This document shows, piece by piece, positions 5,076 through 64,000 of a DNA stretch of 64,000 nt; the first letter of the stretch is position 1, and each line of letters starts with the position of its first letter. Below the pieces are notes generated by a model, which had not been told where the DNA came from, made no database searches, and was given only the letters and a program-made list of their open reading frames with translations. A program made the translations under genes and the position numbers. This stretch comes from an uncultured Bacteroidales bacterium (lineage in GTDB: Bacteria > Bacteroidota > Bacteroidia > Bacteroidales > Paludibacteraceae): contig ONND01000002.1 of the NCBI GenBank assembly GCA_900319105.1, forward strand, positions 114,275 to 178,274. Direction: 5' to 3'.

Positions 5076-5081
5076 AAAAAT

Positions 5082-5113
5082 CTAGTTGACTAGTAACCTA
5101 GTAGACTAGTTAT
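5082..5113. repeat. CTAG-anchored 8-bp tandem array between tig and mpl
   Basis: Four CTAG tetramers fall exactly 8 bp apart (5082, 5090, 5098, 5106) with variable bases between them. The array fills the junction and runs into the tig stop codon at 5110-5112. It lies 7-38 nt upstream of the mpl start. CTAG is usually a rare tetramer in bacteria. Confidence 0.85.
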
Positions 5114-6195
5114 TTAAACAGTTTGTCGAAATCTTCGTGTGAGATAGTCTTCGGTTCGATCTTCGCAATACCTTTGATGACCTCAAAGACCTTATCCTCT
5201 GCCACGCGCTCTACGATGTTACGCAGTTGGTTATCCTGCTTGAGCATCTCCTGTGCATAGTTGGTGAGCATGTCTTCCTCTACGTTCATCAGACCGTACT
5301 GCATGAACTGCATTTTGGCGACACGCTTGGCAAAGGCTTCCACTTCCTCTTTCTGGACGTCGATCTTGTACTCCTTCATGTACTGGTCTTTCGCGAGGTG
5401 CCATTTGAGTTCCTCAATCATCTTCGGGAAGTCCTTATCGAGTTCCTCCTGCGTCATTTTCTCGTTGGTAGCGAGTACCCAGCGCTTGAGGAAGTCCTCG
5501 GGGAAAGCGATGTTCTCCATTTTCTTGAGCACAGCAGCTTTAGCGTCCACACCGAAACGGTACTTGCTCTCTTCGGCAAGGCTGCGCTCAATGTCCTCTT
5601 TGACGCGTGCGCGGAACTCTTTCTCGTTCTTGGGAGCCTCTTTGCCGTACACTTTGGCGAACAACTCAGCGTCCACCTTGCAGGGTTTTACTTCGGCTTT
5701 GGTGCCTTTCTCTTTGTCCTCGGGGATGTATTCGCCGAAGCGGTTGGTGTACGCCTCTACTTGTTTGTCGATCATCTCGTCGGTGACCTGAATGGTGTAC
5801 TCCGGCAGTTTGTTCTTGCCGTTGAGCTTGGCGTCGAACTCAGGTGCTACTGCGATGTCGAAGGCGAAGGTGAAGGTGTCCTCGTGGTCGAGGTCGATGT
5901 TCTTGGTCTCTGCATCGTTAGGCAGCGGTTCACCGAGGATCTGCAGTTTGTTGTCCTCGATGTGCTTGTTCAGGTTCTCGCCTACGAGTTTGTTCAGCAC
6001 GTCAGCGAGGATTCCCTTGCCGTACATTTTTTTCACTAACCCTGCGGGTACCATACCCGGACGGAAACCCGGCATCTGTGCTTTGTGGCGCACTTCTTTC
6101 AACTGTTTGTTTACTTCTTCCTGATAGTCAGCCGGCTCGATAGTGAGGGTTACGACTGCCTTCAGATCTTTCAATTCACTTTGTTCAATTTTCAT
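5110..6195 (-). CDS. tig: Trigger factor, divergent Bacteroidota type
   Basis: 361 aa, shorter than the ~430 aa E. coli protein. The ribosome-binding N-terminal domain is recognisable (AQMPGFRPGMVPAGLVKKMYG, a variant of the GFRxGxxP signature). A PPIase-like middle region appears shortened, and the C-terminal chaperone domain is rich in charged helices. Trigger factor binds the ribosome exit tunnel and helps nascent chains fold. A 9-bp CTAG array lies 34-78 nt upstream. Confidence 0.88.
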   Translation of the reverse strand: MKIEQSELKDLKAVVTLTIEPADYQEEVNKQLKEVRHKAQMPGFRPGMVPAGLVKKMYGKGILADVLNKLVGENLNKHIEDNKLQILGEPLPNDAETKNIDLDHEDTFTFAFDIAVAPEFDAKLNGKNKLPEYTIQVTDEMIDKQVEAYTNRFGEYIPEDKEKGTKAEVKPCKVDAELFAKVYGKEAPKNEKEFRARVKEDIERSLAEESKYRFGVDAKAAVLKKMENIAFPEDFLKRWVLATNEKMTQEELDKDFPKMIEELKWHLAKDQYMKEYKIDVQKEEVEAFAKRVAKMQFMQYGLMNVEEDMLTNYAQEMLKQDNQLRNIVERVAEDKVFEVIKGIAKIEPKTISHEDFDKLFK

Positions 6196-6228
6196 AAATA
6201 TTGTTGTTTTTGTTTTTTTTCTTATTGT

Positions 6229-6273
6229 CTAGTTTATCTAGTTCTTCTAGTTTATCTAGTTTGACTAGTTTTC
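6229..6273. repeat. CTAG-anchored 9-bp tandem array upstream of tig
   Basis: Five CTAG tetramers lie exactly 9 bp apart (6229, 6238, 6247, 6256, 6265); the units read ctagtttat, ctagttctt, ctagtttat, ctagtttga, ctagttttc. The array is in the 159-bp gap between typA and tig, on the 5' side of tig. The rest of the gap holds only short hairpins (for example cgtcc-agt-ggacg near 6319). Confidence 0.85.
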
Positions 6274-6354
6274 TTTTCTCCCTCCCCTCTATGGGGTGAA
6301 GGGCTTTGCCCGATTGAGCGTCCAGTGGACGGTCATAGAACCTTACGGGTGGGG

Positions 6355-12761: not shown

Positions 12762-12762
12762 A

Positions 12763-13916: not shown

Positions 13917-13952
13917 ATAATTGATTTTTATTAGGAAATACAAAATCGCGTG

Positions 13953-14480: not shown

Positions 14481-14486
14481 CGGGTA

Positions 14487-29464: not shown

Positions 29465-30409
29465 TCAATCATCAATCATCAATCTCTCCACAATCTTCTC
29501 CGGCGCAATATCCATGCATCGGTAGTCGCCAAACTTACAGGCCTTATTGCCGTAGATAGAGCACGGTCGGCACGGCAGATCGCGTTGGATGCAGTCGTCT
29601 TCGCTTTGTCCGAAACCTAAGAACCCGGCGAAAGGATGGGTAGCACCCCAGATAGAAACGACTCGTGTGCCGACGAGGGAGGCCAAGTGCATATTACCAG
29701 AGTCCATCGTCAGCATTACGCGCAAGCCGCGCATGAGTGCCAACTCCTCTTTCATCGTCAGTTGTCCTGCTACGGATGTGACGTTCGGGTACTTGTCTGC
29801 CCATACGCCAAGGATCTCTTTCTCTTTCTTTCCTCCACCGAAAAGCACAATGCGCTCGCCCTTTTGGCTCAGCATTTCAATCACGCGTTCCATCCGTTCG
29901 ATTGGGTAGATCTTCCCTTGGTGGGCAGCAAAAGGTGCAATCCCGATGCCGTTCCCTTCGCCGGAACAACGATGTGCGGGGAGCGTGATCGGCATTCCGA
30001 GGGATGCAAACACCTCTGCGTACCGCTCCGTCGTATGTTGCAGCGGGTGATGGATATTACCTTTCGTTAACTGCCGTTTCTCTTCGCGGCCTTTGTGGAT
30101 AGAGGCGATCTTTGCGCCCTTGAAGAGCATTGCCGCACGGATATAAACCGATCGGATCACACTGTGCATGTCGGCAACTAAATCATACGAATCCAAACCC
30201 GACACGATATTTAGCAACGACTGCTTCTTCAGGTCCACACCATGGAACTTCACGTTCAACGGCAGGCCGCTGAACAAGTCTGCAAAACGCTGCTGGGAAA
30301 GCATCGTGAACTCGACATCCGGATACTGCTCCGCTGCCGCACGCACGATAGGTACGAGCATCGCTACGTCACCTAATGCTGAGAATCGTATGACAAGAAC
30401 CCTCTTCAA
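29465..30409 (-). CDS. GT9 heptosyltransferase-family protein, TTG start
   Basis: 314 aa. VLVIRFSALGDVAMLVPIV at the N-terminus and MTMDSGNMHLASLVGTRVVSIWG in the donor domain are GT9 (WaaC/WaaF/WaaQ) signatures. It probably adds a heptose-type sugar to the LPS inner core. The start must be the TTG at 30409: the next ATG would cut into the core motif, and an in-frame stop lies upstream. The last residues RLMIDD are encoded by the junction repeat. Confidence 0.9.
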   Translation of the reverse strand: MKRVLVIRFSALGDVAMLVPIVRAAAEQYPDVEFTMLSQQRFADLFSGLPLNVKFHGVDLKKQSLLNIVSGLDSYDLVADMHSVIRSVYIRAAMLFKGAKIASIHKGREEKRQLTKGNIHHPLQHTTERYAEVFASLGMPITLPAHRCSGEGNGIGIAPFAAHQGKIYPIERMERVIEMLSQKGERIVLFGGGKKEKEILGVWADKYPNVTSVAGQLTMKEELALMRGLRVMLTMDSGNMHLASLVGTRVVSIWGATHPFAGFLGFGQSEDDCIQRDLPCRPCSIYGNKACKFGDYRCMDIAPEKIVERLMIDD

Positions 30410-30428
30410 AACCCCTAACCACTAATCA

Positions 30429-31037
30429 CTAACCCTTCTTCCCGTACAATACGGGATTGAGATTCGGGTCGTTGTACATCTTCATCTGGCGATAGACTTT
30501 CATGATCCGTACACCGGCAGCATAGTCCTCCAACAGCTGGCTGATAGAGGTTGTCATGTCGGATAACTGCTCTTTGAGCACCGCCATCTTCGCTACGCAT
30601 TGTGCGTGTTGCTCCGGGCTGACGTCCGTGCGGTCCACCTGTTCCTGCATGTGCCATAACTTGACGTGCAGGATGCTCAGTCGGTCAATCGCCCATGCCG
30701 GACTCTCCGTGTTGATCTTCGCATTCGGCTGAGGCTTCACGTCGTGGTATTGCTCCCAGAAATAGCTGTCAATACGCTCTACCAGGTCTGTACGGTCCTG
30801 GTTGCTGTGGTCGATGCGGCGCTTGAGTGCCAAGGCTGCCACTGGGTCGATGTTCGGATCGCGGATGATATCCTCCAAATGCCATTGAACGACATCAATC
30901 CAGTTCTTGACGTACAGGTCGTGCTCGATCGTACCGGCCTGATACGGGTTGTTGATCGGCGCATCGACATCATCTGTACGGTGATAGTCCTTGACTGCCT
31001 GCGCAAAAATGCGGTTACTTAGTTCTACAAAATTCAT
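30429..31037 (-). CDS. DUF4254 family protein
   Basis: 202 aa from the ATG at 31037 (MNFVELSNRIFAQAV). Helical, soluble, no signal peptide. Sequence and position directly before a GT9 gene fit DUF4254, a family that accompanies heptosyltransferase genes in Bacteroidales. Its biochemical role is unknown to me; a helper in LPS core assembly is an inference from context. Confidence 0.8.
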   Translation of the reverse strand: MNFVELSNRIFAQAVKDYHRTDDVDAPINNPYQAGTIEHDLYVKNWIDVVQWHLEDIIRDPNIDPVAALALKRRIDHSNQDRTDLVERIDSYFWEQYHDVKPQPNAKINTESPAWAIDRLSILHVKLWHMQEQVDRTDVSPEQHAQCVAKMAVLKEQLSDMTTSISQLLEDYAAGVRIMKVYRQMKMYNDPNLNPVLYGKKG

Positions 31038-32475: not shown

Positions 32476-33439
32476 GGCAGTAGAGCTGATTGATCATTGT
32501 TCCGTTCTCGTCTTCTCCCAAACCGAAATATACTTTCCCGTTAATCGCAAAAGCGATCTGGTTCTCCGCCCGCCCGCACGGCATTTCACCCGCATGACGC
32601 CATTCATCCTCTTTTGGGGAGTATTGTAATATATCCGGAAAAACCTCACCGCCGGTCATCTCTCCCGCAAAACATCGTCCGCCGAAGACATAGATAGCAT
32701 CTTTCGATGCCGCGCAGGCACTGAACGTCCGTCCCTTGCCTGGCGCACTGTGCAGACGAGTCCAGTCGTCCGCCTCTAAATCAACGGTGTACCATTGCTT
32801 GAGATTAGTGGTGTTATTTCCCAGACCATAGAAACAGCGTCCGTCATAGACGGCGCCGACGCTGCCGAATGCAGACAACGCGCGGTAGCGGCTGTCCGGT
32901 GTCGAATGCCAACGGTTGGTTTTAGTATCGTAATAATTGATCTCACGGGTGAAACAACCCGAGGTGCCATAGATGGCGTATATACGTGAACCTACCGCGA
33001 AGAGGGTAGGAGAGACGGTCGTTTCTTGGGGATAGGAGGCTAACTCGGTCCATTGGTCTGTATTAGGATCCCAACGCCACCAGTCGTGAAGATAACTGCT
33101 GTCTGCATAGATCTTACCTTTGCCGTACCCCAGACCCATATAGAGCGCACCGTCGTAGGCGATCATGGCGGCACTCACGCGCGCTTTGCCCGGGAATGAG
33201 GAGACCTGCTTCCATTGATCCGTAGCCGCATCGTATTCCCATAGATCCTTGAGATAAGCGCCGTTCTGAGCCCGTCCACTGAAGACGAACCCTTTGCCGT
33301 TCAAGCTGCACGACACGGCGCTCGCACGAGGCACAGGCATCGAAGCGCACTCTCGCGCGCGCACCTCCACCTCCGGCACATGATGACAACTCATCATCAC
33401 CATCGCCATCACGAATACTATGAATCTCTCAACTCTCAC
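32465..33439 (-). CDS. Kelch-repeat lipoprotein
   Basis: 324 aa. Lipobox MMSC near residue 17, then five to six kelch blades with the W-x6-P-F/Y-G pattern (DLWEYDAATDQWKQVSSFPG, DWWRWDPNTDQWTELASYP), forming a beta-propeller. Probably faces the periplasm or surface and binds glycan or protein; some relatives are sialic-acid mutarotases (NanM). The start is the GTG at 33439, and its first codons (MRVER) are part of a ctctcaa junction repeat. Confidence 0.75.
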   Translation of the reverse strand: MRVERFIVFVMAMVMMSCHHVPEVEVRARECASMPVPRASAVSCSLNGKGFVFSGRAQNGAYLKDLWEYDAATDQWKQVSSFPGKARVSAAMIAYDGALYMGLGYGKGKIYADSSYLHDWWRWDPNTDQWTELASYPQETTVSPTLFAVGSRIYAIYGTSGCFTREINYYDTKTNRWHSTPDSRYRALSAFGSVGAVYDGRCFYGLGNNTTNLKQWYTVDLEADDWTRLHSAPGKGRTFSACAASKDAIYVFGGRCFAGEMTGGEVFPDILQYSPKEDEWRHAGEMPCGRAENQIAFAINGKVYFGLGEDENGTMINQLYCLEE

Positions 33440-33442
33440 CTC

Positions 33443-35042: not shown

Positions 35043-35100
35043 TATCTTACAGACGATTTATCGTCGGTCCTACAGTGTAACGGTCTTACAGCGTAGCGAT
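35043..35100 (-). repeat. Second copy of the hairpin plus 16-bp element, upstream of xth
   Basis: In plus order: tcttaca, hairpin gacga-ttta-tcgtc (35052-35065), then ggtcctacagtgtaac, ggtcttacagcgtagc and gatcctacgac. The hairpin arms differ from the lptB copy, yet the pairing and the TTTA loop are kept. It ends ~9 bp before the xth ATG and covers the M6 protease stop. Confidence 0.8.
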
Positions 35101-36678
35101 CCTACGACCCATTAGGTCGTACATCTGTCCTTTGTACATCAGGTAGATTTGTCCGTTACGCATGATCTTCCTGGGCTTGCCGTCTTCACTCGTTACGTCT
35201 TCTACCGCAGAAGGAACACCGCCGCGGTATTTGAAACTCACGGCTCCGGTCGTAGCGTCGCGGGTGATATCGGTGATCTCATGATTCGAGTACGCTGTCC
35301 ATTCCGTTGCGCCGGCGGGGTATGCATCGGTATATGCAGCGTAACTTGTGGTGTTTTCCTTGGCCTCTAAGATATCCATACCGAACGCACGGCCGTTGTT
35401 ATTGACTCGATTATAGATCCAGTTACTATAAACGAAATCCACTTTGGTGATCAGCATTCCCGGACCCGGTAGATATTCGTCCCATCCTGTTAGAGTACGT
35501 ACCTCCAATAGATAGAATGTAGTGGGGTTGGGATTCCAACCCGACATGTTGTGGGTGTTGGCGGTGGAGATCAAAAGGGACGAACCGGTGCCTTCGTTAA
35601 TCGGATACAACGTCACGTTCTCCGCCTTACTCAGCATGCGCGGCGTAAGCCATCCCATGTAGAAACGCTCGTAGGCGGAATAGGAGGGAGGCGTGTTGCC
35701 GTCGTTGTTATAGGGACCATAGTCCATGATATCCCATTCGGATAAAGTGTGCAAACCTGTCTGCGGATTGTTCGTCTCGTAGAAATCCGGCAAGCCTAAC
35801 ACGTGGCCGAACTCATGGCAGAAGGTGCCGATACCATTATATACATCGCTCCATTTGCTTATCTCATTGCCGCACGCGTAACGGTCGATATACTTGCCAT
35901 CTAACTTAAGCGTTATACCTGCGGAGGATCGAAGGTTCCATTGATGCGGCCATACGGTTTCTTCTCCACCGCCGTCGGCCTCGCCATAACCCGCATAAAC
36001 AACATAGACGAAATCGACATATCCGTCATTATCGTTGTCGTACTGCGAGAAATCAGCACCTGCTTGGTCCGCTAATTCACACGCCTCCTTGATCATCTTT
36101 GGCGCATTGGCATCTTTATTGCTGCCGTAGTAAGAAACCGTATTGCTCAACTGCAGCGGACCGATGAGGTCAAAGACCGGGTTGTACTGACCATAACTCT
36201 GGTCTTGGAAATACTTCCGCGCGCTACCTTCCGAGGTATAGTGTAATGTATGGCCGCTGTACTTGTACTTGTAATCACGAGTGAAATGCTCCCCATTATG
36301 CAAGCTGTCCAAAGTATCTCTGGGCGTCACGAACGACTTGTCCTGGAAATTAACCAGGATCACCAAGCCGCGCGGAGCCGGATTAGGTTCGTCGCCGATA
36401 CCCGCAGTCTGTTGGGCGGCGCGGCGAACCTGTCTCAACCTTGCCTCACCTGCCTGCTGCAGACGCGCTTTCTCGCTCTCACTCAGCGGAACCAAACTCT
36501 GCTCGTCTAACCATTGACCCTGCTCGTCTGTCATATAGTGGAAATGCTCATTACCGTGCAGATAAACGGTCTTCTCTTTTCCGTCTGCGCCTGTGCGGAC
36601 AAAACCTCCGCGTCGCGCCGGAATACCCCAAACGCCTACGCTGATAAATAGCGTGGCTATCAATAAGATTTTTTTCAT
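35086..36678 (-). CDS. Secreted M6-family metalloprotease
   Basis: 530 aa. Signal peptide to ~residue 20, propeptide to ~100, then the M6 catalytic domain with HEFGHVLGLPD (residues 288-298, zinc ligands His288, His292 and a downstream Asp). QYDNDNDGYVDFVY precedes it, as in immune-inhibitor-A-like proteases. The last ~30 residues (RKIMRNGQIYLMYKGQ) match the short C-terminal tail of other secreted proteins here. The ATG overlaps the mlaF stop by 4 bp, an odd pairing of an extracellular protease with a lipid-transport operon. Confidence 0.88.
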   Translation of the reverse strand: MKKILLIATLFISVGVWGIPARRGGFVRTGADGKEKTVYLHGNEHFHYMTDEQGQWLDEQSLVPLSESEKARLQQAGEARLRQVRRAAQQTAGIGDEPNPAPRGLVILVNFQDKSFVTPRDTLDSLHNGEHFTRDYKYKYSGHTLHYTSEGSARKYFQDQSYGQYNPVFDLIGPLQLSNTVSYYGSNKDANAPKMIKEACELADQAGADFSQYDNDNDGYVDFVYVVYAGYGEADGGGEETVWPHQWNLRSSAGITLKLDGKYIDRYACGNEISKWSDVYNGIGTFCHEFGHVLGLPDFYETNNPQTGLHTLSEWDIMDYGPYNNDGNTPPSYSAYERFYMGWLTPRMLSKAENVTLYPINEGTGSSLLISTANTHNMSGWNPNPTTFYLLEVRTLTGWDEYLPGPGMLITKVDFVYSNWIYNRVNNNGRAFGMDILEAKENTTSYAAYTDAYPAGATEWTAYSNHEITDITRDATTGAVSFKYRGGVPSAVEDVTSEDGKPRKIMRNGQIYLMYKGQMYDLMGRRIATL

Positions 36679-48969: not shown

Positions 48970-49023
48970 AAACGAGGGTAAAACGGTACAGTGACGTCCG
49001 TAATGGTAACGAGATGCTAACGT

Positions 49024-49056
49024 AAATGACCGCTAAATAACCGCTAAATGACAGAT
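49024..49056. repeat. 11-bp tandem array, core AATNACC
   Basis: Units aaatgaccgct, aaataaccgct, aaatgacagat in exact 11-bp register between two opposed terminators. The 48970-49023 stretch has related but less regular words. Confidence 0.75.
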
Positions 49057-49089: not shown

Positions 49090-50166
49090 TTACTTCAGTT
49101 TAGCCGCCCAGCGGCGAAGATATGCATACCACTCCTCGGCACTTGTTGCCACGGGGTGGTTTTCTTTCGTCACTCCGCAGCAGGTCAGGTAGAAATGTGC
49201 GGTATAAGGCATATCTGACTTCTGACCGCTGATTTCTGATTTCTGACTTCTGGCTTCTGACTTCTGTTTTAGCAGGCAGAGATTGTTCTGTTTGTCATGA
49301 ACAACTTCTCCCGCATATTCTTTGGGAATAAACACTCCTAAGCCTACCGTCTCTTTGGCATATTTGGCAGAATCGTTTACCGGCCAATCGGTGCCCCAGG
49401 AACCTAATAACACACCATTCGGAAGAATAATCGTTATAGTGTCCTTGCCCCCTTTGGCAGGAATGGTTTGCACACCCGTACAGAGGCCTTCAATGCCCCT
49501 CTCAGTTCCCCCGTGAAGAGGGGATGAGCAAAATACATCGCATCGCATATCGCGATGGCCCGCTTTTAATGTGTATCGGACGTTCATATCTATACCATTC
49601 TCCTTCCCTTCAGGGGAGGTCCGGAGAGGCTTCCAATCCTTCACCGCTACTTCTATGGTGGCAGCGTTGCGGGTTTGGCGAACGATACGTTGGCTGCGTT
49701 CGGCCACAGGCTCGATATGTACCATTTTTTTGCCGTTCCAGTACTTGACACTACCGACACCTACTGTGCCGGATACGCGCAGAATATCATCGCCGTAGCC
49801 GGCAGCGAGCAGACTGTCGTTCGGGTACCAATAACTGGCACCCAATTCCAACTGCGGCTTCCGTTTGCAATAAGGATCGATGGTCTGTTTCTTGTCGAAA
49901 TAGATGCGGTACGCCATTACTTCGCTTTCCACCGCTACGCCGTGGTGGTGAAGCGAATGATAGGTGTCCACTTTCTCGTCATTGGACGTCCATTCGGTAA
50001 TAGGGTAGCAGTGCCGGGTTTTACCTTCGGCATGGATAACCGTGTACCCCGGACGGATACTATCTGCCGGAGTGCCGATTTTCCAAAACGAGGTCGCTAC
50101 CCGCGGGGCGCACCCCGCGAGTAACAAACTCATTAGCGATAGTCCGATATTTCGATATATCGACAT
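49090..50166 (-). CDS. DUF4861 lipoprotein
   Basis: 358 aa from the ATG at 50166; an ATG at 50184 adds MMIDIE encoded by the junction repeat. Lipobox LLAGC. The sequence (YHSLHHHGVAVESEVMAYRIYFDKKQTID, ASYWYPNDSLLAAGYGDDILRV) fits DUF4861, found with pectin and uronate utilisation genes. A pectin role is supported by the GH28 gene just upstream. Residues ~308-325 (KQKSEARSQKSEISGQKSD) are encoded by a tandem DNA array (49213-49266) and look like an insertion in the fold. Confidence 0.8.
   Translation of the reverse strand: MSIYRNIGLSLMSLLLAGCAPRVATSFWKIGTPADSIRPGYTVIHAEGKTRHCYPITEWTSNDEKVDTYHSLHHHGVAVESEVMAYRIYFDKKQTIDPYCKRKPQLELGASYWYPNDSLLAAGYGDDILRVSGTVGVGSVKYWNGKKMVHIEPVAERSQRIVRQTRNAATIEVAVKDWKPLRTSPEGKENGIDMNVRYTLKAGHRDMRCDVFCSSPLHGGTERGIEGLCTGVQTIPAKGGKDTITIILPNGVLLGSWGTDWPVNDSAKYAKETVGLGVFIPKEYAGEVVHDKQNNLCLLKQKSEARSQKSEISGQKSDMPYTAHFYLTCCGVTKENHPVATSAEEWYAYLRRWAAKLK
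49213..49266 (-). repeat. Tandem array inside the DUF4861 coding sequence
   Basis: Repeated tctgacttctgattt words of 7-8 bp, reading frame open through the whole array. They add a Gln/Lys/Ser-rich loop. Confidence 0.8.
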
Positions 50167-50187
50167 TTCAATATCAATCATCAATCA

Positions 50188-51722
50188 TCAATTGATCTGT
50201 ACATTCTCTACCGTCGGCGCAAGAGAGAAAGCTTCGCCTTTCTTAGCCTTGATATCTACATGATCGATGATGAGTCCGTTCGTCTGGCGGAAGAGAGCTC
50301 CTTCGTCAGCAGAGATCACAATGTTACGCAGGGTCACATTCTGGATCTTCATCTCCGGCAGACCGTTGAAATAGATGGCGCGTTTGATATTCGTGCCCTT
50401 CACGTTCTCAATGACGATATTCTTGAAGGCCGGCGTCTCTTCGCTTGCCTCCGGAGCCTCGGCATTCATGCGTGCGGCCAACTCTTCTTCGGTCTCTTCG
50501 CCTGCGCCCTTACCGCCGTAGAAGAGATCAAAGAGCAGACCCTCGTTCGGGATATTGACCATGTTTACGCCGTTGATGTAGATGTTCTCCACTACACCAC
50601 CGCGACCGCGAGTCGATTTGAAACGCAGACCGACATCGGTTCCTATATAGAGGTTGTTGCGCACCTCGACATTCTTAATACCGCCTGACATCTCCGACCC
50701 GCATACGAAACCGCCGTGACCATGATAAACGACACAATCATCAACTACTACGTTCTCCGTCGGAATACCTCTGTCGCGACCGGGTTTATCTTTTCCGGAC
50801 TTCATGCAGATGGCATCGTCGCCCACGTCGAACGAGCAATGACAGATCACTACGTTCTTACAACTCTCTACATCCACGCCGTCGCCGTTCTGGCTGTACC
50901 ACGGGTTACGGACGTTGAGGTTGTTCATAATCAGGTTCTCGCAGCACATCGGGTGGAGATTCCATGCCGGGCTGTTCTCAAACGTAACTCCTTCAAGCAG
51001 GATATTCTTGCATCCTACGAAATGCAGCATTACCGGACGGAGGAAAGACTTCACTACCTGCCAAAGGCTGTCATCGGTAATAACCGGCACGTTCTGGTCC
51101 AGGCAGTAGGTCTGCGCGAGAATAGAAGCGCTATCCGGGTACCAGATATCGTTATCTACAACGCCGCCTTTCTCCTTCAGGTGTTTCTTCCATTGACTTG
51201 GAGCCATTTTGCCCTTCTTGAGCGGACGCCACCAATCGCCGTTACCATTGAACGTACCATAACCGGTGATAGCGATATTCTCTGCGTCGCGTGCATTGAG
51301 CGGGCTGGTGCAACGCTTGGTCGGGATGCCCTCAAACCACTCGTCGTAGATCTCATATCATGAGAGAAGAGAATGAAACTGTTCTTCTCCGTGTAGAGAC
51401 GCACGTTGGATTTTAAGGTGATAGGTCCGGTGGTGTAAATGCCTTCCGGGATAATAACGGTACCGCCACCGGCAACTGTACACTCGTCAATGGCTTTCTG
51501 GATAGCCTCCGTTGCCAGAACAACACCTGTGTTGTCCGCTCCGAAATCCAGCACATTGTACGTGCGGCTCGGGAAAGAGGGGACTTCCACTTTAGGCATC
51601 TTGAACGAAGCGGACTTGGTCAGCTTGTTGATTTCCTTTTGCGTCGTTGTTTGGTACTGTGGCGCGTTGCAAGCGCCCATCATCGCTGCGGTAAGCAGCA
51701 ATAGAATGAATCTGTTTCTCAT
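50188..51722 (-). pseudogene. GH28 polygalacturonase-family gene interrupted by a frameshift
   Basis: The N-terminal frame (51722 to ~51360) has a lipoprotein signal (MMGAC) and YNVLDFGADNTGV, ending in GH28 sequence at FILFSHD. Past ~51360 the family sequence continues in the other frame: YEIYDEWFEGIP, then NIAITGYGTFNGNGDWW, and on through CHCSFDVGDDAICMKSGKD (catalytic Asp pair) to 50188. A missing base near 51358-51362 restores one ~510-aa protein. It would cleave galacturonan in the periplasm. A sequencing error is as likely as true decay, since the rest is intact. Confidence 0.85.
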
Positions 51723-51747: not shown

Positions 51748-52494
51748 TTATATGTTATAAATGAATTCCGGATAAGTTATTTCTACTAATGATAATCCCT
51801 CCGCAGGCGCAGAATGACCTGCACAACATCGGCAACGCGCCGCAATTACATCGTCAAACGCTTCTTCGTCCATTTTGCCTCTCCCTACTTCGAAAAGCGT
51901 TCCGACGATTGCCCGAACCATGTTACGCAGGAATCGGTCTGCGGTAATGACGAAATAAGCCTCCGTCTCGTTCTCCTCTATCCATCGTGCCTCGCGAACG
52001 TCGCAGATGGTTGTCCTGGCGTCCGTGTGTGCGCGGCAGAAAGAAGCGAAATCCTGTTTGCCCAGTAGTCGCTGTGCGGCAGCATTCATGGCGTCGAAAT
52101 CAAGCCCCTCCGCTACGCGCGCATGATTAATATAGAGAAATGGATCCTTGCGGGTGGTGATCCGATAGTAGTACGTTCGCGAAGTGGCATCAAAGCGTGC
52201 GTGCGCCAATTCTATCACAGGACGAATAGAGTGAACGGCAATCGAATTAGGTAGCAGGTTATTCAGCCGCGCGCCAAGATTAGCCGGTATATCCTTCATT
52301 ACGTCAAAATGCGCTATCATCTTCTCTGCATGGACACCCGCGTCCGTGCGCCCGGCGAAAGTAAGAGAGACCGGTTCCCGCATGATCGTTGCAAAAGCAG
52401 ACTCTAACGATGCCTGTACTGTATCTCCGTTCGGCTGTATCTGCGAGCCGTGGAAATCCGTTCCCCGATATGCAAATTCAATAAAATAACGCAT
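51748..52494 (-). CDS. truA: tRNA pseudouridine synthase A
   Basis: 248 aa. RYFIEFAYRGTDFHGSQIQPNGDTVQ and FAGRTDAGVHAEKM (catalytic Asp in the GRTDAGVHA motif) identify TruA, which modifies U38-40 of tRNA anticodon stems. A 23-bp tandem repeat directly abuts its ATG. Confidence 0.96.
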   Translation of the reverse strand: MRYFIEFAYRGTDFHGSQIQPNGDTVQASLESAFATIMREPVSLTFAGRTDAGVHAEKMIAHFDVMKDIPANLGARLNNLLPNSIAVHSIRPVIELAHARFDATSRTYYYRITTRKDPFLYINHARVAEGLDFDAMNAAAQRLLGKQDFASFCRAHTDARTTICDVREARWIEENETEAYFVITADRFLRNMVRAIVGTLFEVGRGKMDEEAFDDVIAARCRCCAGHSAPAEGLSLVEITYPEFIYNI

Positions 52495-52551
52495 GGTCTT
52501 TAGTCTTTGTGCGAAGTGGTCTTTAGTCGTTGTGCGAAATGGTCTATCTGG
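52495..52551. repeat. 23-bp tandem repeat between flippase and truA
   Basis: ggtctttagtc(t/g)ttgtgcgaa(g/a)t occurs twice in tandem with a partial third copy. It starts at the base after the truA ATG and encodes the last residues of the flippase, including its stop at 52500. Confidence 0.85.
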
Positions 52552-55276: not shown

Positions 55277-55297
55277 TGTTGTTATTATTTAATTTTT

Positions 55298-55329
55298 CGA
55301 TATTTCGGTATATCGGTATATCGTGTATT
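55298..55329. repeat. 8-bp tandem array upstream of the double-domain FKBP gene
   Basis: Units cgatattt, cggtatat, cggtatat, cgtgtatt in exact 8-bp register, 22 bp upstream of the ATG at 55276 and ending next to the stop of the preceding FKBP gene. Confidence 0.85.
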
Positions 55330-55330
55330 T

Positions 55331-55915: not shown

Positions 55916-55941
55916 AAAATATAATTTTGAATTCGTAATTT

Positions 55942-56562
55942 TTAATTTTTAATTTGCGATAAGTACCGCGCCATGTATTTGCCGAGGATGTCAAACTCGA
56001 TATTCACCACGGTACCCGCTTCTATATACTTGAAGTTGGTATTCTCCTCGGTATAGGGGATGATACAAACAGATACATAGCCTTTGTTGCCTTGGATATC
56101 CGGTTCGCAGACCGTCAGGCTGACGCCATTGATGGTTACTGATCCTTTGTCCACGCAGAAATAGCCGCGTTCAACCATCTCTTTGGTCGAGTCATATTCA
56201 AAGCGGTAGTACCAACTGCCGTCGGTCTCATGCGCGTCGATACAAACGGCTTTCTGATCCACGTGGCCCTGTACAATATGTCCGTCCAAGCGGCCGCCCA
56301 TGAGCATTGAGCGCTCTACGTTAACCCAATCGCCCTCTTTAAGCAGGTCAAGATTGGTCAGACGGAGCGTCTCCTGCATGGCGGTGACGGTATAGAGGTC
56401 GCCCTCAATCTTCACCACGGTCAGACACACGCCGTTATGAGCGATCGATTGGTCAATACTCAACGCTTCGCCAAACGGATTGCGAAGTGTGAAATGTTTA
56501 TTGGTTTGCTCGGTCTCAATCTTAACGACCTGAGCCATTGTTTCTACAATTCCTGAAAACAT
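55942..56562 (-). CDS. ribE: Riboflavin synthase alpha subunit
   Basis: 206 aa with two lumazine-binding repeats; MFSGIVETMAQV at the start, SIAHNGVCLTVV and SVTINGVSLTV in the two halves. It converts two 6,7-dimethyl-8-ribityllumazine molecules to riboflavin. No RFN element is seen; other rib genes are not in the window. Confidence 0.95.
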   Translation of the reverse strand: MFSGIVETMAQVVKIETEQTNKHFTLRNPFGEALSIDQSIAHNGVCLTVVKIEGDLYTVTAMQETLRLTNLDLLKEGDWVNVERSMLMGGRLDGHIVQGHVDQKAVCIDAHETDGSWYYRFEYDSTKEMVERGYFCVDKGSVTINGVSLTVCEPDIQGNKGYVSVCIIPYTEENTNFKYIEAGTVVNIEFDILGKYMARYLSQIKN

Positions 56563-56564
56563 AA

Positions 56565-56594
56565 AACTATTTACGATTTAACTATTTACGATTT
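56565..56594. repeat. 15-bp perfect tandem repeat upstream of ribE
   Basis: aactatttacgattt occurs twice in tandem, starting 3 bp upstream of the ribE ATG and reaching the stop codon of the flippase gene. Confidence 0.9.
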
Positions 56595-58041
56595 ATTTCT
56601 TAAAGTATTTTCCCACAACCGGTAGTCCGCTAAGCGGAAAATCGCTGCGGGTCATTTTGATAATATACACCACTATGAAGAATGTACCGATCGCCATCAG
56701 TACCCACATGTTCAAGTTGAAATAATGGCGTATATAGTAATATACCGCTAATAAACCGAAGGTCAGCAGGGTATAGTCGCCGATGCTCTTGAGATCGTAC
56801 GGGATCGGGGCTTTCTTCTGACCGATGAAATAGGACAGCAGCATAATGGTAAAATAGCATACAAGACTACTGCCGCAACTTGCCCAGTACCCGATTCGCG
56901 GCACACCCACGATTTGCAGCACCAATGTGATTACCAGTCCGATTAATGAGAAATACGCGCCCCATTTGGTCTCATCCGTCAACTTATACCAGAAACTGAG
57001 GTTGAAATAGACCCCTTGGAACACATATGTCCATAGCACTACCGGCACGATCTTCAATCCCTCCCAGTACGCACTGGAAACGATGTAACGGAAGATGTCC
57101 AGATAGAAGATCACACCTAACAGGATGAGGTACGAGAAGATGATATAATACTTCATCGCATCGGCGTACGCCTCGACAGACTGACGGTCTTTATGCTTGG
57201 AAAAGACAAAGGGTTCGTAGGCATACCGGAAGGCTTGGGTGAACATCATCATCACCATCGCTACCTTGAAGCAGGCACCGTAGATACCGAGTTGCGATTG
57301 AGCGTCTTCGCCGGGATAGAGGTACGGGAAGAGAATACGGTCCAGCGTCTGGTTCATGATACCTGCCACACCTAATACCAGTAACGGCAAAGAGTAACGT
57401 AGCATCTCTTTGAGTGCCTTTCCGTCAAACTGTCCGCCTTTCGGCATCGTGAACGGCAATAAACAAAGCGTCTGAATACCTGTCGCCATCAGATTGCTGA
57501 GGAAGACATAGAAGACGTCGTTCTTACCCAGAATAACCAGGAAGAGAAGGTTAAAAGCGATGTTGAGAATGACGAACAGCAGTTTCAGGGCGGCAAAGAG
57601 GATCGGGCGTTTCTGGTTGCGTAGGTGAGCAAAAGGAATGGATGCAAACGCGTCAACTGCTACCGTCACGAACATCATCGCTACGAACTCCGCATGGTCG
57701 GCATAACCCAGCACACTGGCCAAGGGTTGCTGAAAGACGATGACCAACAGCGCAAACAACGTACTCGTGCTGAGTAAGGTCCAATAGGCGGTCTTATAGA
57801 CACTCTTCGCGTCGTAGTCCTCGCGGTTGGCGAAACGGAAGAAGCCGGTCTCCATGCCGTACGTCAGCAACACTAACAGCAATGCAGTCCAGGCGTACAG
57901 GTTCGTAACGATACCGTAATCGTCCGTACGCGCCAAAGCGTAGGTATAGAGCGGCACTAACAGGTAGTTCAGGAACTTACCTATTATCGAACTCAAACCA
58001 TAGATGGCGGTGTCCTTCGCCAAGGATTTCATTTCACTCAT
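56593..58041 (-). CDS. Oligosaccharide flippase-like membrane protein
   Basis: 482 aa, about 14 membrane segments. KSLAKDTAIYGLSSIIGKFLNYL is a typical Wzx/MVF-family start. It would export a lipid-linked glycan repeat unit. It is only distantly similar to the other flippase here. An in-frame ATG at 58032 is an alternative start. The start overlaps rsmI by 8 bp. Confidence 0.87.
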   Translation of the reverse strand: MSEMKSLAKDTAIYGLSSIIGKFLNYLLVPLYTYALARTDDYGIVTNLYAWTALLLVLLTYGMETGFFRFANREDYDAKSVYKTAYWTLLSTSTLFALLVIVFQQPLASVLGYADHAEFVAMMFVTVAVDAFASIPFAHLRNQKRPILFAALKLLFVILNIAFNLLFLVILGKNDVFYVFLSNLMATGIQTLCLLPFTMPKGGQFDGKALKEMLRYSLPLLVLGVAGIMNQTLDRILFPYLYPGEDAQSQLGIYGACFKVAMVMMMFTQAFRYAYEPFVFSKHKDRQSVEAYADAMKYYIIFSYLILLGVIFYLDIFRYIVSSAYWEGLKIVPVVLWTYVFQGVYFNLSFWYKLTDETKWGAYFSLIGLVITLVLQIVGVPRIGYWASCGSSLVCYFTIMLLSYFIGQKKAPIPYDLKSIGDYTLLTFGLLAVYYYIRHYFNLNMWVLMAIGTFFIVVYIIKMTRSDFPLSGLPVVGKYFKK

Positions 58042-58723: not shown

Positions 58724-58740
58724 CTTAACAATTTAACGGT

Positions 58741-59334: not shown

Positions 59335-59371
59335 AAAATCCTTTGTCCTTTGTACTTGGTCCCTTTGTTCC

Positions 59372-60910
59372 TTATTTTGTTGCGTCTTCGAGTTTACCCA
59401 TCATGGCAAACATGAAGATGGCAGCAATGAGACAAACGCCGATGAACACGCTCCAAACGAGCCACAGCGGCAGACTGCCCCAGAGGAAACCACCCACAGA
59501 AACAAGGAAGTTACCCAGTGCTGTAGCTACAAACCAGCCACCCATCATCATTCCTTTGTATTGCGGAGGTGCCACTTTGCTTACAAATGAGATACCCATC
59601 GGACTGAGAAGCAACTCGCCGAAAGTCAAAATCAGATACGTATAGATCAGTACGTTCGAGTTTACAAACGTAGCCTCGCCGCTCACGCGAGCCAACTCCT
59701 GCTCTGCCGGGGTCAGCAGACCGATAGAGCAGAAAGCCATCAAGGCGTACGCAGCTGCGGCTACCAGCATTCCATAAGCAATCTTGCGCGGAGCACTCGG
59801 CTCTTTGCCTTTCTTTGCCAGCGCACCGAAAATAGCCATGCTAACCGGCGTCAGAGCTACTACGTAGAACGGGTTAAACTGCTGGAAAATAGGCGCGGAG
59901 ATACCCAACTCAATCGGGTGGTGGAAGTACTTATATGCCAGCGCTACGAGAACTGTTACACCAACACAACTCCAGATCATCTTCGCTTTCTTCTCTCCAT
60001 CGCCGAACACGCCAAACAGCGCATAAACGAGGATGGCTACCAAAACAAGATTCCAAATATCAAATGCCATCGTCTGGACGCCCGTCACTACCGGCGTTAC
60101 AAACTCATTGGCGAAATACGTCAGCGTCAGTCCGTTCTGGTGGAATGCCATCCAGAAGAAGAGCACTACGGCGAATACGAGGCACAATGCCACGATACGT
60201 TTTTTCGTCTGCTCCGGCGAGAGTTCCTCTACTTTCTGACCGCTTGCAGCTGCTTGTTTGGCGGTGTTCTCTACGTGCTTGAACCAAGGACGGCAAGCGT
60301 AATAAATAGCGATACTGAGTACCAGCGAAGCGCAGGCTACAGCGAAAGCAAAGTGGTAACTGTCGTTCACGCTTGTGCCCAGACTCTCCTGTGCCCAAGC
60401 CATGATCTTCACGGCCGCCGTCGGTGCGAACATGGCACCGATGTTGATCGCCATGTAGAACAGCGAGAAAGCGGCGTCGCGGCGATCTGCATAGGCGGGA
60501 TCGTCATAGAGGTTGCCGACCATCACCTGCAAATTGCCCTTGAAAAGACCCGTACCGAAACTGATGAGCACCAAAGCTCCGATCATGCCCGCCATCGCTA
60601 CTGCGGTACTGCCGTACTCCACGCCGCCCATAGGAATCGCCAAGAGCACGTATCCTAAGAACATAATGATAATACCTATCGTCACGCATTTGCCGTAACC
60701 GATTTTATCGGCTACAATACCGCCGATGAGCGGCAGGAAATATACGAACGCAAGGAACGTAGAGTAAATAGCGCCTGCAGCCGAAGCGGACAGACCAAAA
60801 TTAGCGCGCAAGAAAAGCGCAAACACGGCTAACATCGTGTAGTAGCCGAAACGCTCGCCTGTGTTGGCAAGCGCCAACGCGAACAATCCTTTGGGTTGAT
60901 TCTTAAACAT
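59372..60910 (-). CDS. POT/PTR2-family proton-dependent peptide transporter
   Basis: 512 aa, about 12-14 membrane segments. FYMAINIGAMFAP is a PTR2 signature and LANTGERFGYYTMLAVFALFL holds the ExxERFxYY-like motif. It imports di- and tripeptides with protons. It is preceded by an 8-bp CTAG array and ends beside the ctttgtc array. Confidence 0.93.
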   Translation of the reverse strand: MFKNQPKGLFALALANTGERFGYYTMLAVFALFLRANFGLSASAAGAIYSTFLAFVYFLPLIGGIVADKIGYGKCVTIGIIIMFLGYVLLAIPMGGVEYGSTAVAMAGMIGALVLISFGTGLFKGNLQVMVGNLYDDPAYADRRDAAFSLFYMAINIGAMFAPTAAVKIMAWAQESLGTSVNDSYHFAFAVACASLVLSIAIYYACRPWFKHVENTAKQAAASGQKVEELSPEQTKKRIVALCLVFAVVLFFWMAFHQNGLTLTYFANEFVTPVVTGVQTMAFDIWNLVLVAILVYALFGVFGDGEKKAKMIWSCVGVTVLVALAYKYFHHPIELGISAPIFQQFNPFYVVALTPVSMAIFGALAKKGKEPSAPRKIAYGMLVAAAAYALMAFCSIGLLTPAEQELARVSGEATFVNSNVLIYTYLILTFGELLLSPMGISFVSKVAPPQYKGMMMGGWFVATALGNFLVSVGGFLWGSLPLWLVWSVFIGVCLIAAIFMFAMMGKLEDATK

Positions 60911-60935
60911 AAATTATTTGGTTTTTTGTTATTTT

Positions 60936-60975
60936 CTAGTTTACTAGTAGACTAGGGTCCTAGGGTCCTAGTCAA
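60936..60975. repeat. CTAG-anchored 8-bp array upstream of the peptide transporter
   Basis: Five CTAG tetramers exactly 8 bp apart (60936, 60944, 60952, 60960, 60968). The last one supplies the ilvE stop codon (TAG on the minus strand, 60968-60970). Confidence 0.9.
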
Positions 60976-62008: not shown

Positions 62009-62510
62009 CAAATAATCTGTCTAATATACTTATCTCCGTTTGCCACGGATGTTTGTCGGTCCAAATCTGTCCGCTCCAGTCGGCGGTGCGTTCTGAATGC
62101 TGAATGCTGACGGCTGCCGGCCTTTCCCGTTTTATCAGCGAGGCGAGCGTTGCGTTCAGTTCGTCATTGAGGTCCAGCAACCACTTGTATTCCTGCTCGT
62201 AGAACGGCTTGAGGTAGTCCGCGAAATACATGAAATACGGTGTGTGTTGGTAGGCGCTGACGAGGGTGATCCAGTGTTGGTGTTGCCAACGCGTCTGATA
62301 ACTGATCTCGATGTCCCGCGTGAGCTGTTTGTGCTCCACTTTCTTCACCGGTATCGTCAGTCGCACCAACTCGCCTTTGGCGTCGCGGATGAGTGCCCGG
62401 TTGCGGAACGTCTGTTTCTCAAACGTCTCCATCTGCTCGATCGTACAGGGTTCGCTCATCAGTGCCTCCATGTACGACAAGGGCGGCAAATATGCGGTAG
62501 GTAGGATCAT
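61995..62510 (-). CDS. WbqC-like family protein
   Basis: 171 aa from the ATG at 62510 (MILPTAYLPPLSYMEAL), overlapping lepB by 4 bp; a longer frame would lie inside lepB. TFRNRALIRDAKGELVRLTIPV and YFADYLKPFYEQEYKWLLDLN are typical of the WbqC family. WbqC members sit in O-antigen loci, but here the gene order dapB-lepB-wbqC is the one common in Bacteroidales. Role unknown. Confidence 0.85.
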   Translation of the reverse strand: MILPTAYLPPLSYMEALMSEPCTIEQMETFEKQTFRNRALIRDAKGELVRLTIPVKKVEHKQLTRDIEISYQTRWQHQHWITLVSAYQHTPYFMYFADYLKPFYEQEYKWLLDLNDELNATLASLIKRERPAAVSIQHSERTADWSGQIWTDKHPWQTEISILDRLFDERD

Positions 62511-63871
62511 CTGCCTGTTGCTTTGCGACCGAGCCGCTCCCAGCGGATACCGTGTTTGTCTTTGTCGATACTCAGCCATATGAATACCGGCCGTCCGACG
62601 ATGTGGTCCTCCGGCACGAAACCCCAATAACGGCTGTCCGCGCTATTATGCCGATTGTCTCCCTGCATCCAGTAGTAGTCCATCGCAAACTCATACTCCT
62701 CACCGATGTGCATCGGCTTGAACTCATACGCCTCGGCAATTCGCTTATAAACCCAATAGTTCTCCTCCGTAATCATCAGCTTGTCGCCTTTTCGTGGAAT
62801 ATAAATCGGACCGTAGTTGTCACGCGTCCAGTCGTTGTGCCCCAAAGGATATACAGCACCGCCGCGATCTGCCGGCTCTACTTCGATACGCACTACATGC
62901 GGGTTCTTCTCCAACTCTGCCTTCATGGCTTCGGTCAACGGGAAATGCCAGATTGTCGGCTCTACCTGCACACGGTCTGCCACACTGATGCCGATTTTCT
63001 CCAGGTATTTTGCCCCGAAGAGATGTCCGTCTGTATGTACAAAATAATTGAGTTGCACACCCTCGCGGAAAGGCTCTTCTTGCCAATCATTTTTGTCTTT
63101 TGTCCATTGTCCATTGTCCTTCGTCCAAATCGTGTTGTCCACGATTTTCAACGAGTCTCCCGGCTCGCCCACGCAGCGTTTTACGTAGTTCTCTCGCCTG
63201 TCCACAGGACGCGTGACGATCTCACCGAAAACATCCTTTCTGCTTTGGATCATGTTCTCGCCGTAGTAATATTTGAGCGTGTAGTAATCAGGATTTTGCA
63301 TCTTCAGACAAACGGTGTCGCCTGCCGGGAAGTTGAATACAACAATGTCGCCCTTCTTCGGACTTGTCCAGCCCTTGAGACGCTTGTATTCCCAATGCGG
63401 CCAATCCAGATAACTCTTCCCGCCACCCAACCAATCCGGCATCGTGTGTTGTACCAACGGCATACTCAACGGTGTCTGCGGCACACGGGCGCCGTAAGCC
63501 ATCTTGCTGACATACAGAAAATCACCGACACGCAGGGATTTTTCCAAAGACGACGAAGGAATCTGGTAGTTCTGGAAGATATACACATTGATGAAATACA
63601 CTGCCACTAATGCAAAAACAATCGCATCGATCCATGAGCAGAGGGTGTAGAGGGCAGGTTGGGTGTCTTTGTATTTCCGCCACCAACTATAGTTGATGTA
63701 CCGCGTAGTGAACATATCTACGATCAGCGGCAGCAACGCCAGCCAACCCAAACTCTTCCAGTCGCCCCATGCGACCCAAATAACGAACGCGATATACAAC
63801 GCGCTCCAGACACACGCGCGGATCCATCCGCTACGCGGCACTTCGTTGATTCTATCTTGCAAACTTTTCAT
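62507..63871 (-). CDS. lepB: Signal peptidase I
   Basis: 454 aa from the ATG at 63871. Two N-terminal membrane segments (~20-60), a third near 80-100, then IPSSSLEKSLRVGDFL with Ser108 as nucleophile and NYVKRCVGEPGDS with Lys231. The distance is long, with large insertions typical of Bacteroidota LepB. It removes signal peptides at the periplasmic face. Residues ~245-258 (TIWTKDNGQWTKDKND) are encoded by a 7-bp tandem array. Confidence 0.93.
   Translation of the reverse strand: MKSLQDRINEVPRSGWIRACVWSALYIAFVIWVAWGDWKSLGWLALLPLIVDMFTTRYINYSWWRKYKDTQPALYTLCSWIDAIVFALVAVYFINVYIFQNYQIPSSSLEKSLRVGDFLYVSKMAYGARVPQTPLSMPLVQHTMPDWLGGGKSYLDWPHWEYKRLKGWTSPKKGDIVVFNFPAGDTVCLKMQNPDYYTLKYYYGENMIQSRKDVFGEIVTRPVDRRENYVKRCVGEPGDSLKIVDNTIWTKDNGQWTKDKNDWQEEPFREGVQLNYFVHTDGHLFGAKYLEKIGISVADRVQVEPTIWHFPLTEAMKAELEKNPHVVRIEVEPADRGGAVYPLGHNDWTRDNYGPIYIPRKGDKLMITEENYWVYKRIAEAYEFKPMHIGEEYEFAMDYYWMQGDNRHNSADSRYWGFVPEDHIVGRPVFIWLSIDKDKHGIRWERLGRKATGR
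63092..63126 (-). repeat. 7-bp tandem array inside lepB
   Basis: Five units in register: tttgtct, tttgtcc, attgtcc, attgtcc, ttcgtcc. They encode a Lys/Asp/Trp-rich loop between the catalytic lysine box and the C-terminal part. Confidence 0.85.
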
Positions 63872-63893
63872 TCTCACTCGTGCTTTTGTACTT

Positions 63894-63926
63894 ATTGTTA
63901 CCTGGTTTTTACCTGATTATTACCTG
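63894..63926. repeat. 11-bp tandem array between lepB and dapB
   Basis: Units attgttacctg, gtttttacctg, attattacctg in exact register. The third contains the dapB stop codon. Confidence 0.8.
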
Positions 63927-64000
63927 ATCCCAATTTTTTCAGCTGCTAATACTGCTCCTAATGCAAAGCCCCTTCTTCCCTTGGCGATGTGGGTAATAAT
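63920..64000 (-). CDS. dapB: 4-hydroxy-tetrahydrodipicolinate reductase, C-terminal end
   Basis: The minus strand reads IITHIAKGRRGFALGAVLAA then EKIGIR and TAA at 63920-63922. The RxGFALGAVLAAE ending is that of DapB, the NAD(P)H-dependent reductase of lysine/Dap synthesis. The gene continues beyond the window edge. dapB directly upstream of lepB is the usual order in Bacteroidales. Confidence 0.8.
   Translation of the reverse strand: MITHIAKGRRGFALGAVLAAEKIGIR

What the first reader, a model, noticed from the sequence alone, without database searches (positions are those of the whole stretch)
5076..63929. Private short-unit tandem arrays at operon junctions, placed just before start codons
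At least fifteen junctions carry a degenerate tandem array with its own unit sequence, usually 7-9 bp (sometimes 15, 16 or 23 bp). Clear cases lie upstream of mpl (5082), tig (6229), RND (12763), the sulfatase-fold gene (22402), GT90 (29462), GT9 (30411), the kelch gene (33424), lptB (34199), xth (35043), truA (52495), both FKBPs (55298, 55917), ribE (56565), rsmI (58724), the coiled-coil gene (59341) and the POT gene (60936). They usually lie between 0 and 40 nt from the start and often include the neighbour's stop codon. Units differ between loci, so this is not one dispersed repeat; the shared property is position and period. Possible explanations: slippage products kept because they give unstructured, tunable initiation regions, or an active repeat-generating process. 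I know of no description of it.
Basis: partly seen in the sequence, partly recalled or inferred. Interest (0 to 1): 0.75.

Follow-up and report, generated by a model that had tools for sequence, protein, structure and literature searches.

The report
Species-specific short DNA repeat arrays
In a group of uncultured bacteria, many of them from animal guts, many small gaps between genes and some loops inside proteins consist of short repeated DNA 'words' that differ from species to species; the feature is real and changes fast, but it is not tied to the start of genes as first thought.

Summary
Three corrections. (1) Not tied to start codons: in gaps of 80 nt or more, arrays lie next to 61 of 262 stops and 57 of 356 starts; they also fill convergent gaps and sit inside genes. 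Closeness to starts mostly reflects a 31-nt median gap. (2) Not wholly private: words recur at several loci of one genome. (3) Not generally unstructured: period-8 arrays fold more than shuffles. New here: of 126 orthologous junction pairs with an array in both species, 7 share a 9-mer. One Mpl ligase loop, array-free in the window, holds different arrays in 14 of 41 distinct sequences. Some words have fixed and free positions (CGnnATnn, TTTGAnA). Orientation tracks stop codons, partly by definition. Most likely: a 7-nt-dominated repeat-forming process plus retention at permissive sites; the writing step is unidentified. Intergenic heptamer arrays are a known kind (Xanthomonas, Nostoc, Beggiatoaceae); this is a multi-word, fast-changing variant.

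The parts
5082..5110 (-). CTAG-type 8-mer array filling the tig/mpl gap
   Evidence: the same junction in congeners is an overlap, a short palindrome or another word
6225..6271 (-). CTAG-type 9/18-mer array upstream of tig
   Evidence: a similar CTAG array at this junction in L066 and L069, not in L059 and L010
12762..12806 (-). TTTGAnA heptamer array (14-nt higher-order unit) filling the RND gene gap
   Evidence: 26 further BLAST matches in the genome
22400..22430 (+). 7/14-mer array at the sulfatase gene start, includes the upstream stop
   Evidence: Sulfatase Pfam match
29465..29501 (-). TGATTGA heptamers covering the stop of the gene at 29465-30361, plus an 11-mer, both in its coding tail
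30410..30434 (-). AGTGGTT heptamer array
33426..33448 (-). TTGAGAG heptamer array at the kelch gene gap
34216..34259 (-). 16-mer array (AAAGACCGTTACGCTG) at lptB
35065..35105 (-). related 16-mer array at xth, extending 20 nt into the upstream gene
50137..50192 (-). CGnnATnn 8-mer array beside TGATTGA heptamers
52493..52545 (-). 23-mer array, 2.3 copies, mostly in the coding tail of the gene at 52500-54017 and across the 5-nt gap to the truA gene
55297..55328 (-). CGnnATnn 8-mer array upstream of an FKBP gene
55922..55955 (-). AAAAATT heptamers at the second FKBP gene, extending 14 nt into the upstream gene
56565..56595 (-). 15-mer (7+8) array AAATCGTAAATAGTT at ribE
59339..59373 (-). GGACAAA-type heptamers at the coiled-coil gene
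60914..60971 (-). CTAG 8-mers plus A-rich 7-mers at the POT gene
49023..49052 (.). 11-mer array in a convergent gap (no start codon adjacent)
49214..49266 (-). heptamer array inside the coding sequence of a DUF4861 gene (49090-50133)
4350..4376 (-). Mpl loop, residues 234-242, where 20 of 41 distinct sequences have a longer form, 14 of them with a TRF array; no array in the window itself

Best explanation
The arrays are products of an ongoing, genome-wide tandem-repeat-forming process with a preferred step (7 nt in this species, also 8 and 11), using words that recur within a genome and differ between species. Arrays survive where they do little harm: gaps between genes of any arrangement, gene 3' tails and tolerant protein loops. 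Stop codons filter them: stop-rich orientation between co-directional genes, stop-poor inside genes. They sit just before start codons here because the median operon gap is 31 nt. Shown: excess over chance, difference between congeners at orthologous sites, word sharing within two congeners and in the own-genome sample, presence in a coding loop, and position-specific variation for three words. Inferred: that the writing step is replication slippage or a related copying event (a heptamer preference from polymerase contact is attributed to Mrazek et al. in PMC4679880), that locus-to-locus sharing reflects copying between arrays, and that the orientation bias is selection rather than gene-calling definition. 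The writing step is not identified.
For: Excess over shuffles: window, own genome, 20 congener stretches 86 in sum against 11.4 (2 of the 20, L081 and L084, show no clear excess), two congeners in larger samples 65 against 8 and 80 against 10. No start preference. Arrays in convergent gaps and coding; coding period 7: 39 against 5-9 in four synonymous shuffles. Turnover: 7 of 126 orthologous array pairs share a 9-mer, against 1.6% of random cross-genome pairs and 13 of 192 (6.8%) of arrays at different junctions of one genome. Words recur within genomes: 105 identical pairs in G034 and G055, permutation p = 0.0005; TTTGAnA x3 matches per genome, overlapping ones counted, range from 0 to 96. 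Orientation: co-directional 101 against 40, coding 27 against 77. Mpl loop. Lag 7 has 706 trinucleotide runs against 17-171 at the other lags from 5 to 16.
Against: Period-7 units next to each other are not more alike than distant ones: lag-1 identity 0.284 against 0.269 order-shuffled, 85 arrays, which simple unit-by-unit slippage does not predict; period 8 shows none either (16 arrays), while period 11 does fall from 0.246 to 0.087 with distance (14 arrays), as slippage would. Within-array changes concentrate at certain positions, so neutral drift alone does not explain the words. In the window alone identical words are no more common (1 of 210) than between window and G055 (9 of 1491). The orientation bias is partly built in: a called gene cannot hold an in-frame stop, and stop-free junction arrays tend to be called as coding. 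Of 36 coding arrays looked at, only one (L093) was an insertion against nearly all relatives. MutS1 is over its cut-off in 56 of 61 genomes, including array-rich G034, G055, G015 and the own genome, so loss of mismatch repair is not the cause. The sense strand is A-rich (0.388 against 0.319 outside arrays), as a translation role would also predict.
Confidence: 0.6

Rival explanations
1. Arrays act in translation initiation or coupling: an A-rich, stop-rich pad that ends upstream translation in all frames and loads ribosomes for the next gene.
For: Co-directional junctions have the highest density (3.28 per kb) and a stop-rich sense orientation; the sense strand is A-rich. MacGregor 2015 proposed translational roles for TAACTGA arrays before start codons (PMC4679880, section read).
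Against: No excess at starts where start and stop separate; convergent gaps are also rich, divergent gaps with two starts are poorest (in the own genome alone the divergent density is not lower than the convergent one); period-8 arrays more structured; several congeners have an overlap or a very short gap at the same junction.
Confidence: 0.12
2. Arrays are binding platforms for a DNA- or RNA-binding protein; fixed positions are the recognised bases, free positions are not read.
For: Within-array substitutions at free positions: CGNNATNN 45 of 49 (expected half), new stretches 6 of 6; TTTGANA 30 of 42 (expected 0.14), new stretches 9 of 16; CTAGNNNN 30 of 40, no array in the new stretches. CGnnATnn x3 plus CG in 40 of 61 genomes, up to 95 matches per strand with overlapping ones counted, reversed control 0-1. 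Fixed positions of the 8-mers are dyad-symmetric.
Against: Many unrelated words per genome; the same junction changes word between species; arrays inside coding loops. A single reader protein for all words is implausible.
Confidence: 0.13
3. A templated or element-like writer inserts word arrays, and arrays are swapped by it rather than grown by slippage.
For: Same word at several loci of one genome, different words at one site, period-7 units exchangeable along an array, species-specific step, for example intergenic period 11 without 7 in the 40 kb of G009.
Against: No element or enzyme found; a RAYT/IS200-type Y1 transposase has no match in array-rich G034, G050 and G015. Convergent seeds plus slippage could give the same picture; period-11 arrays do show the neighbour likeness of slippage.
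Confidence: 0.12

Closest known systems
TAACTGA heptamer direct repeats of marine Beggiatoaceae, cyanobacteria and five Bacteroidetes (MacGregor 2015, PMC4679880; abstract, introduction, part 1 of the results, the cyanobacteria/Bacteroidetes and summary sections read)
   Same: 7-nt units, intergenic, stop codons in the unit, some overlap the end of the upstream ORF, interior copies mostly in the reverse, stop-free orientation, some Bacteroidetes included
   Different: There one word dominates and most sets end just before a start codon; here many words per genome, no start preference, word differs between congeners. TAACTGA x3 is absent from the window's genome.
GGGANTN heptamers of Xanthomonas and GGGGA(T/C)T of Nostoc (PMC4692102; abstract start, passages and one section read)
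   Different: G-rich, with quadruplex potential, one word studied, the majority between the same genes in the two Xanthomonas compared; here A/T-rich, many words, little sharing at orthologous junctions
Borg tandem repeats (PMC9879509; abstract, sections 2.1.2 and 2.1.3 and first part of the discussion read)
   Same: Fast-evolving, formed independently at intergenic and coding sites, A-rich
   Different: Borg repeats are perfect, essentially unique at each region, and virtually always a multiple of three in ORFs; here degenerate, words recur, and period 7 is the commonest class counted in coding
Long simple sequence repeats with heptamer excess (Mrazek et al. 2007, known to me only as cited in PMC4679880 and PMC4692102); cyanobacterial STRR (recalled, and seen only as mentions in a search listing)
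   Same: Heptamers the most abundant class
   Different: Survey-level in what I saw; no orthologous-site comparison seen

Membership tests
Prokaryotic heptamer-dominated intergenic tandem arrays (broad kind) | Period 7 in excess over neighbouring periods and over shuffles | tested here: met
   not so in every congener (G009)
Prokaryotic heptamer-dominated intergenic tandem arrays (broad kind) | Enriched between genes relative to coding | tested here: met
   3.28, 2.24 and 0.99 per kb between genes against 0.13 per kb in coding (score 34 or more, periods 7, 8, 10, 11, 14, 16)
TAACTGA repeats (MacGregor 2015) | Unit TAACTGA | tested here: not met
   TAACTGA x3: 0 forward, 0 reverse in the own genome; 9 of 149 genomes of the order
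[quoted passage not shown]
   start 57 of 356, stop 61 of 262 in gaps of 80 nt or more
Xanthomonas/Nostoc G-rich heptamers | G-rich quadruplex-forming unit | tested here: not met
   sense composition of co-directional arrays A 0.388, G 0.180
Borg tandem repeats | ORF repeats a multiple of three | tested here: not met
   coding arrays of the own genome, all periods from 5: period 7 is the largest class, 39 of 143
REP elements moved by RAYT | Y1 transposase accompanies the repeats | tested here: not met
   Y1_Tnp match in 23 of 61 genomes, 18 over the cut-off, none in array-rich G034, G050, G015
Phase-variable SSR | Copy number varies between strains | not testable with these tools
   one genome per species held

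The most novel reading that the evidence does not exclude
A lineage-specific process writes and rewrites short word arrays at permissive sites across the genome, following a word grammar of fixed and free positions (dyad-symmetric for the 8-mers CGnnATnn and CTAGnnnn), with exchangeable units in the 7-mers, a species-specific step length, and reuse of the same words at unrelated loci. It would be a DNA-writing activity other than polymerase slippage.
Probability: 0.16. Interest if true: 0.87.

Novelty: new variant of a known kind. Interest (0 to 1): 0.57.

Why it matters
It shows a bacterial genus of more than 100 species in which many operon spacers, and a loop of a cell-wall recycling enzyme, hold species-specific repeats that change at orthologous sites although the flanking proteins are mostly 85% or more identical. 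That makes the old question why heptamer repeats are favoured in bacteria testable by comparison: the congeners differ in word, step and density, and one sampled congener (G028) shows no excess in 40 kb. It also warns that small ORFs, N-termini and protein tails in such genomes can be array-derived.

Tried and rejected
Start-codon pad: not supported. Loss of MutS: not supported; mutS1 over its cut-off in 56 of 61 genomes; the five without are 54-92% complete and include array-rich G018 and G059. RAYT/Y1 transposase as writer: no match in three array-rich genomes. Array-by-array concentration test: 2 of 41 at p<0.05, underpowered; tests pooled by word used instead, then repeated on new stretches of two congeners, G034 and G055, of which one 20-kb stretch each was in the first set (CTAGNNNN had no array there). 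The word patterns were picked after looking at arrays, so the p-values are not pre-registered; a pattern with the free position moved gave no effect (TTTNAGA 2 of 27, TTTGNGA 2 of 29), NTCTAGAN gave 9 of 12, AAATCGT had one array only. Counts with reversed controls: for TTTGAnA the control is not zero in many congeners and exceeds the match in some (for example G056 and G070). A CAANNNN skeleton was tried genus-wide: 47 of 61 genomes, but its reversed control is high in several, so I do not use it. Palindromic gaps in CGnnATnn runs: match 0.434 against 0.320 shuffled, but direct match 0.584 is stronger, so a fold-back origin is not shown. Rfam and tRNA scans of the window: nothing. Taxon survey rests on small stretches: another genus of the family 3 arrays against 3.0; elsewhere in the order G349 13 against 0.8, G376 7 against 0.6, G433 6 against 0.6, G303 4 against 0.6, G386 3 against 0.8, five others 0 or 1; in the class G214 9 against 2.0, G101 3 against 0.2, two others 0 and 1. 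The G349, G433 and G214 stretches were chosen because a pattern search had hit there. No strain-level comparison was possible. XisH/XisI, discussed beside such repeats by MacGregor, was looked up in papers only, not searched in the genomes.
Full report
What is there. The window (64 kb) belongs to a 2.26-Mb, 30-contig genome. Relatives of its trigger factor in named records are Bacteroidales and Paludibacteraceae MAGs, several labelled rumen or pig (21 loci; records very near the window may be left out there). TRF lists 65 rows in the window. In the window's 31 intergenic regions of 15-1500 nt there are 22 arrays, in 14 regions, against a mean of 2.3 and a maximum of 6 in 100 dinucleotide shuffles. 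In 457 kb of the same genome the counts are 93 against 8.4 (co-directional), 22 against 3.6 (divergent) and 11 against 1.0 (convergent), with periods 7, 8 and 11 favoured. Many of those stretches were picked because an array had been hit there; six without a hit give 26 against 2.4.

Position. The gene caller is my own; stops are reliable, starts less so. The median co-directional gap is 31 nt, so an array in a gap is close to both a stop and a start. In gaps of 80 nt or more over 61 loci, an array covers at least 10 of the 40 nt next to a start at 57 of 356 starts and next to a stop at 61 of 262 stops (p = 0.03 towards stops, p = 0.39 within co-directional gaps alone; own genome alone 22 of 129 and 20 of 99, p = 0.6). 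Array density per kb is 3.28 in co-directional gaps, 2.24 in convergent ones, 0.99 in divergent ones and 0.13 in coding (score 34 or more, six periods). Arrays cover the stop codon in 113 of 837 genes and the start codon in 49 of 837. So the start codon is not the shared property.

Words recur within a genome. A BLAST of the RND-gap array gives 26 further matches in the genome. Identical period-7/8 words at different places of G034 (71 of 2016 pairs) and G055 (34 of 2485) are more common than between the two (17 of 4544; permutation p = 0.0005); in the window alone there is 1 of 210, no more than between window and G055 (9 of 1491). Three TTTGAnA in a row give 96 matches in G034, 47 in the own genome and 0 in many congeners, overlapping matches counted; 43 of 101 genomes, own included, have any, and 23 of 198 drawn from the class. 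The reversed control is 0 and 5 on the two strands of the own genome but exceeds the matches in some congeners. The step differs too: in 40 kb of G009, periods 10 and 11 make up 13 of 18 intergenic arrays, with no 7 among them.

Turnover. At orthologous junctions of the mpl region, the gap is an overlap, a short palindrome, or an array of another word (four junctions shown). Of 612 orthologous junction pairs among 21 genomes (pairs not independent), 126 have arrays in both, 315 in one and 171 in neither. Of the 126, 7 share a 9-mer, although 515 of the 612 pairs have flanking proteins at a mean identity of 85% or more. Arrays at different junctions of the same genome share one in 13 of 192 cases, and random arrays of different genomes in 1.6%.

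Inside genes. Coding sequence of the own genome has 39 period-7 arrays against 5-9 in four synonymous shuffles. The clearest case is the Mpl ligase. Of 51 loci asked, 45 gave the loop region (41 distinct sequences): 21 have the 31-residue form, the window among them, and 20 a longer form of 32-42 residues. TRF at score 30 finds an array in the loop in 14 of the 20 longer forms and in none of the 21 short ones; two others hold a REP-like palindrome (L031, L068). The words differ between many of the species. In L096 and L090 the same word also lies at neighbouring junctions. In one search, of 36 coding arrays in the mpl region of 21 genomes, only one, in a 618-residue protein of L093, is an insertion against nearly all relatives (17 of 18); most align without a gap to something in the relatives.

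Orientation. Between co-directional genes, arrays have more stopped frames in sense than in antisense in 101 cases against 40 (76 equal); in coding the balance is 27 against 77 (36 equal; Fisher p = 1e-12); divergent gaps give 5 against 9 and convergent gaps 10 against 5. Part of this is definition, because a called gene has no in-frame stop and a stop-free junction array tends to be called as coding. It fits insertion in either direction with stop-bearing copies removed from genes.

Word grammar. Within arrays of the CGNNATNN type (20 arrays), 45 of 49 substitutions fall on the four free positions; TTTGANA (27 arrays) 30 of 42 on one of seven positions; CTAGNNNN (12 arrays) 30 of 40. New stretches of two congeners give 6 of 6 (3 arrays) and 9 of 16 (9 arrays); no CTAG array was there. 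Genus-wide, CGnnATnn three times plus CG is found in 40 of 61 genomes, up to 95 matches per strand in one, with a reversed-pattern control of 0 or 1. Fixed positions mean that something other than neutral drift shapes the words, but I cannot say whether it is binding, structure or the writing step. A fixed-and-free heptamer, GGGANTN, is already known in Xanthomonas (PMC4692102, passages).

Structure. Against 60 dinucleotide shuffles each, period-7 arrays are near neutral (mean z -0.20, n = 50), period-8 arrays more structured (-1.45, n = 38), period-14 arrays too (-1.51, n = 14), period 11 slightly (-0.57, n = 27). 'Unstructured initiation region' is therefore not a general property.

Mechanism. 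I favour a repeat-forming process with a 7-nt-dominated step and retention at permissive sites. Slippage is the usual candidate; a heptamer preference from polymerase contact length is attributed to Mrazek et al. 2007 in PMC4679880 (introduction read). Against plain slippage, period-7 units next to each other are no more alike than units further apart (85 arrays), though period-11 arrays (14) do show that decline, and words recur between loci. Loss of MutS and a Y1 transposase do not explain it.

Known or new. Nine completed paper searches in a partial open-access library listed no description for this clade. The kind is known: TAACTGA arrays (PMC4679880), G-rich heptamers (PMC4692102), Borg repeats (PMC9879509). 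What I did not find described is many words per genome, near absence of sharing at orthologous junctions, and one protein loop that carries different arrays across a genus.

Noticed in passing
window:19129-19156 and 19995-20022: Two adjacent genes both carry a heptamer array (TTATTCC / TTACTCC) 27 nt after the called start, coding LYSLFLIPYS and LYSLLLIPCS.
   Followed up: no
L051, L052, L053, L057, L058: Genes called with a start such as ATGTCAAATATCAAATATC, so the called start codon lies inside or at the edge of an array and the N-terminus (MSNIKYQIS and the like) is array-coded; the true start may lie downstream.
   Followed up: partly
window:6196-6354; L031 and L068 Mpl loop: REP-like G/C-rich palindromic stretches (CCTCCCTTGAGGGGAGG type in the loop) in gaps, and in two congeners inside the Mpl loop where others have arrays.
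   Followed up: no
window:43175-48760: 1861-residue ORF with no Pfam match at E 0.001, in a low-GC part of the window.
   Followed up: no
L140, L141 (G028): A 98%-complete congener with no excess of arrays in 40 kb (1 against 1.2 shuffled), a natural contrast for gene-content comparison.
   Followed up: partly
L108 (G349), L110 (G376), L112 (G433): Other Bacteroidales families with array excess (13, 7 and 6 against 0.8, 0.6 and 0.6), so the feature looks patchy across the order (L108 and L112 were chosen by a pattern hit).
   Followed up: partly
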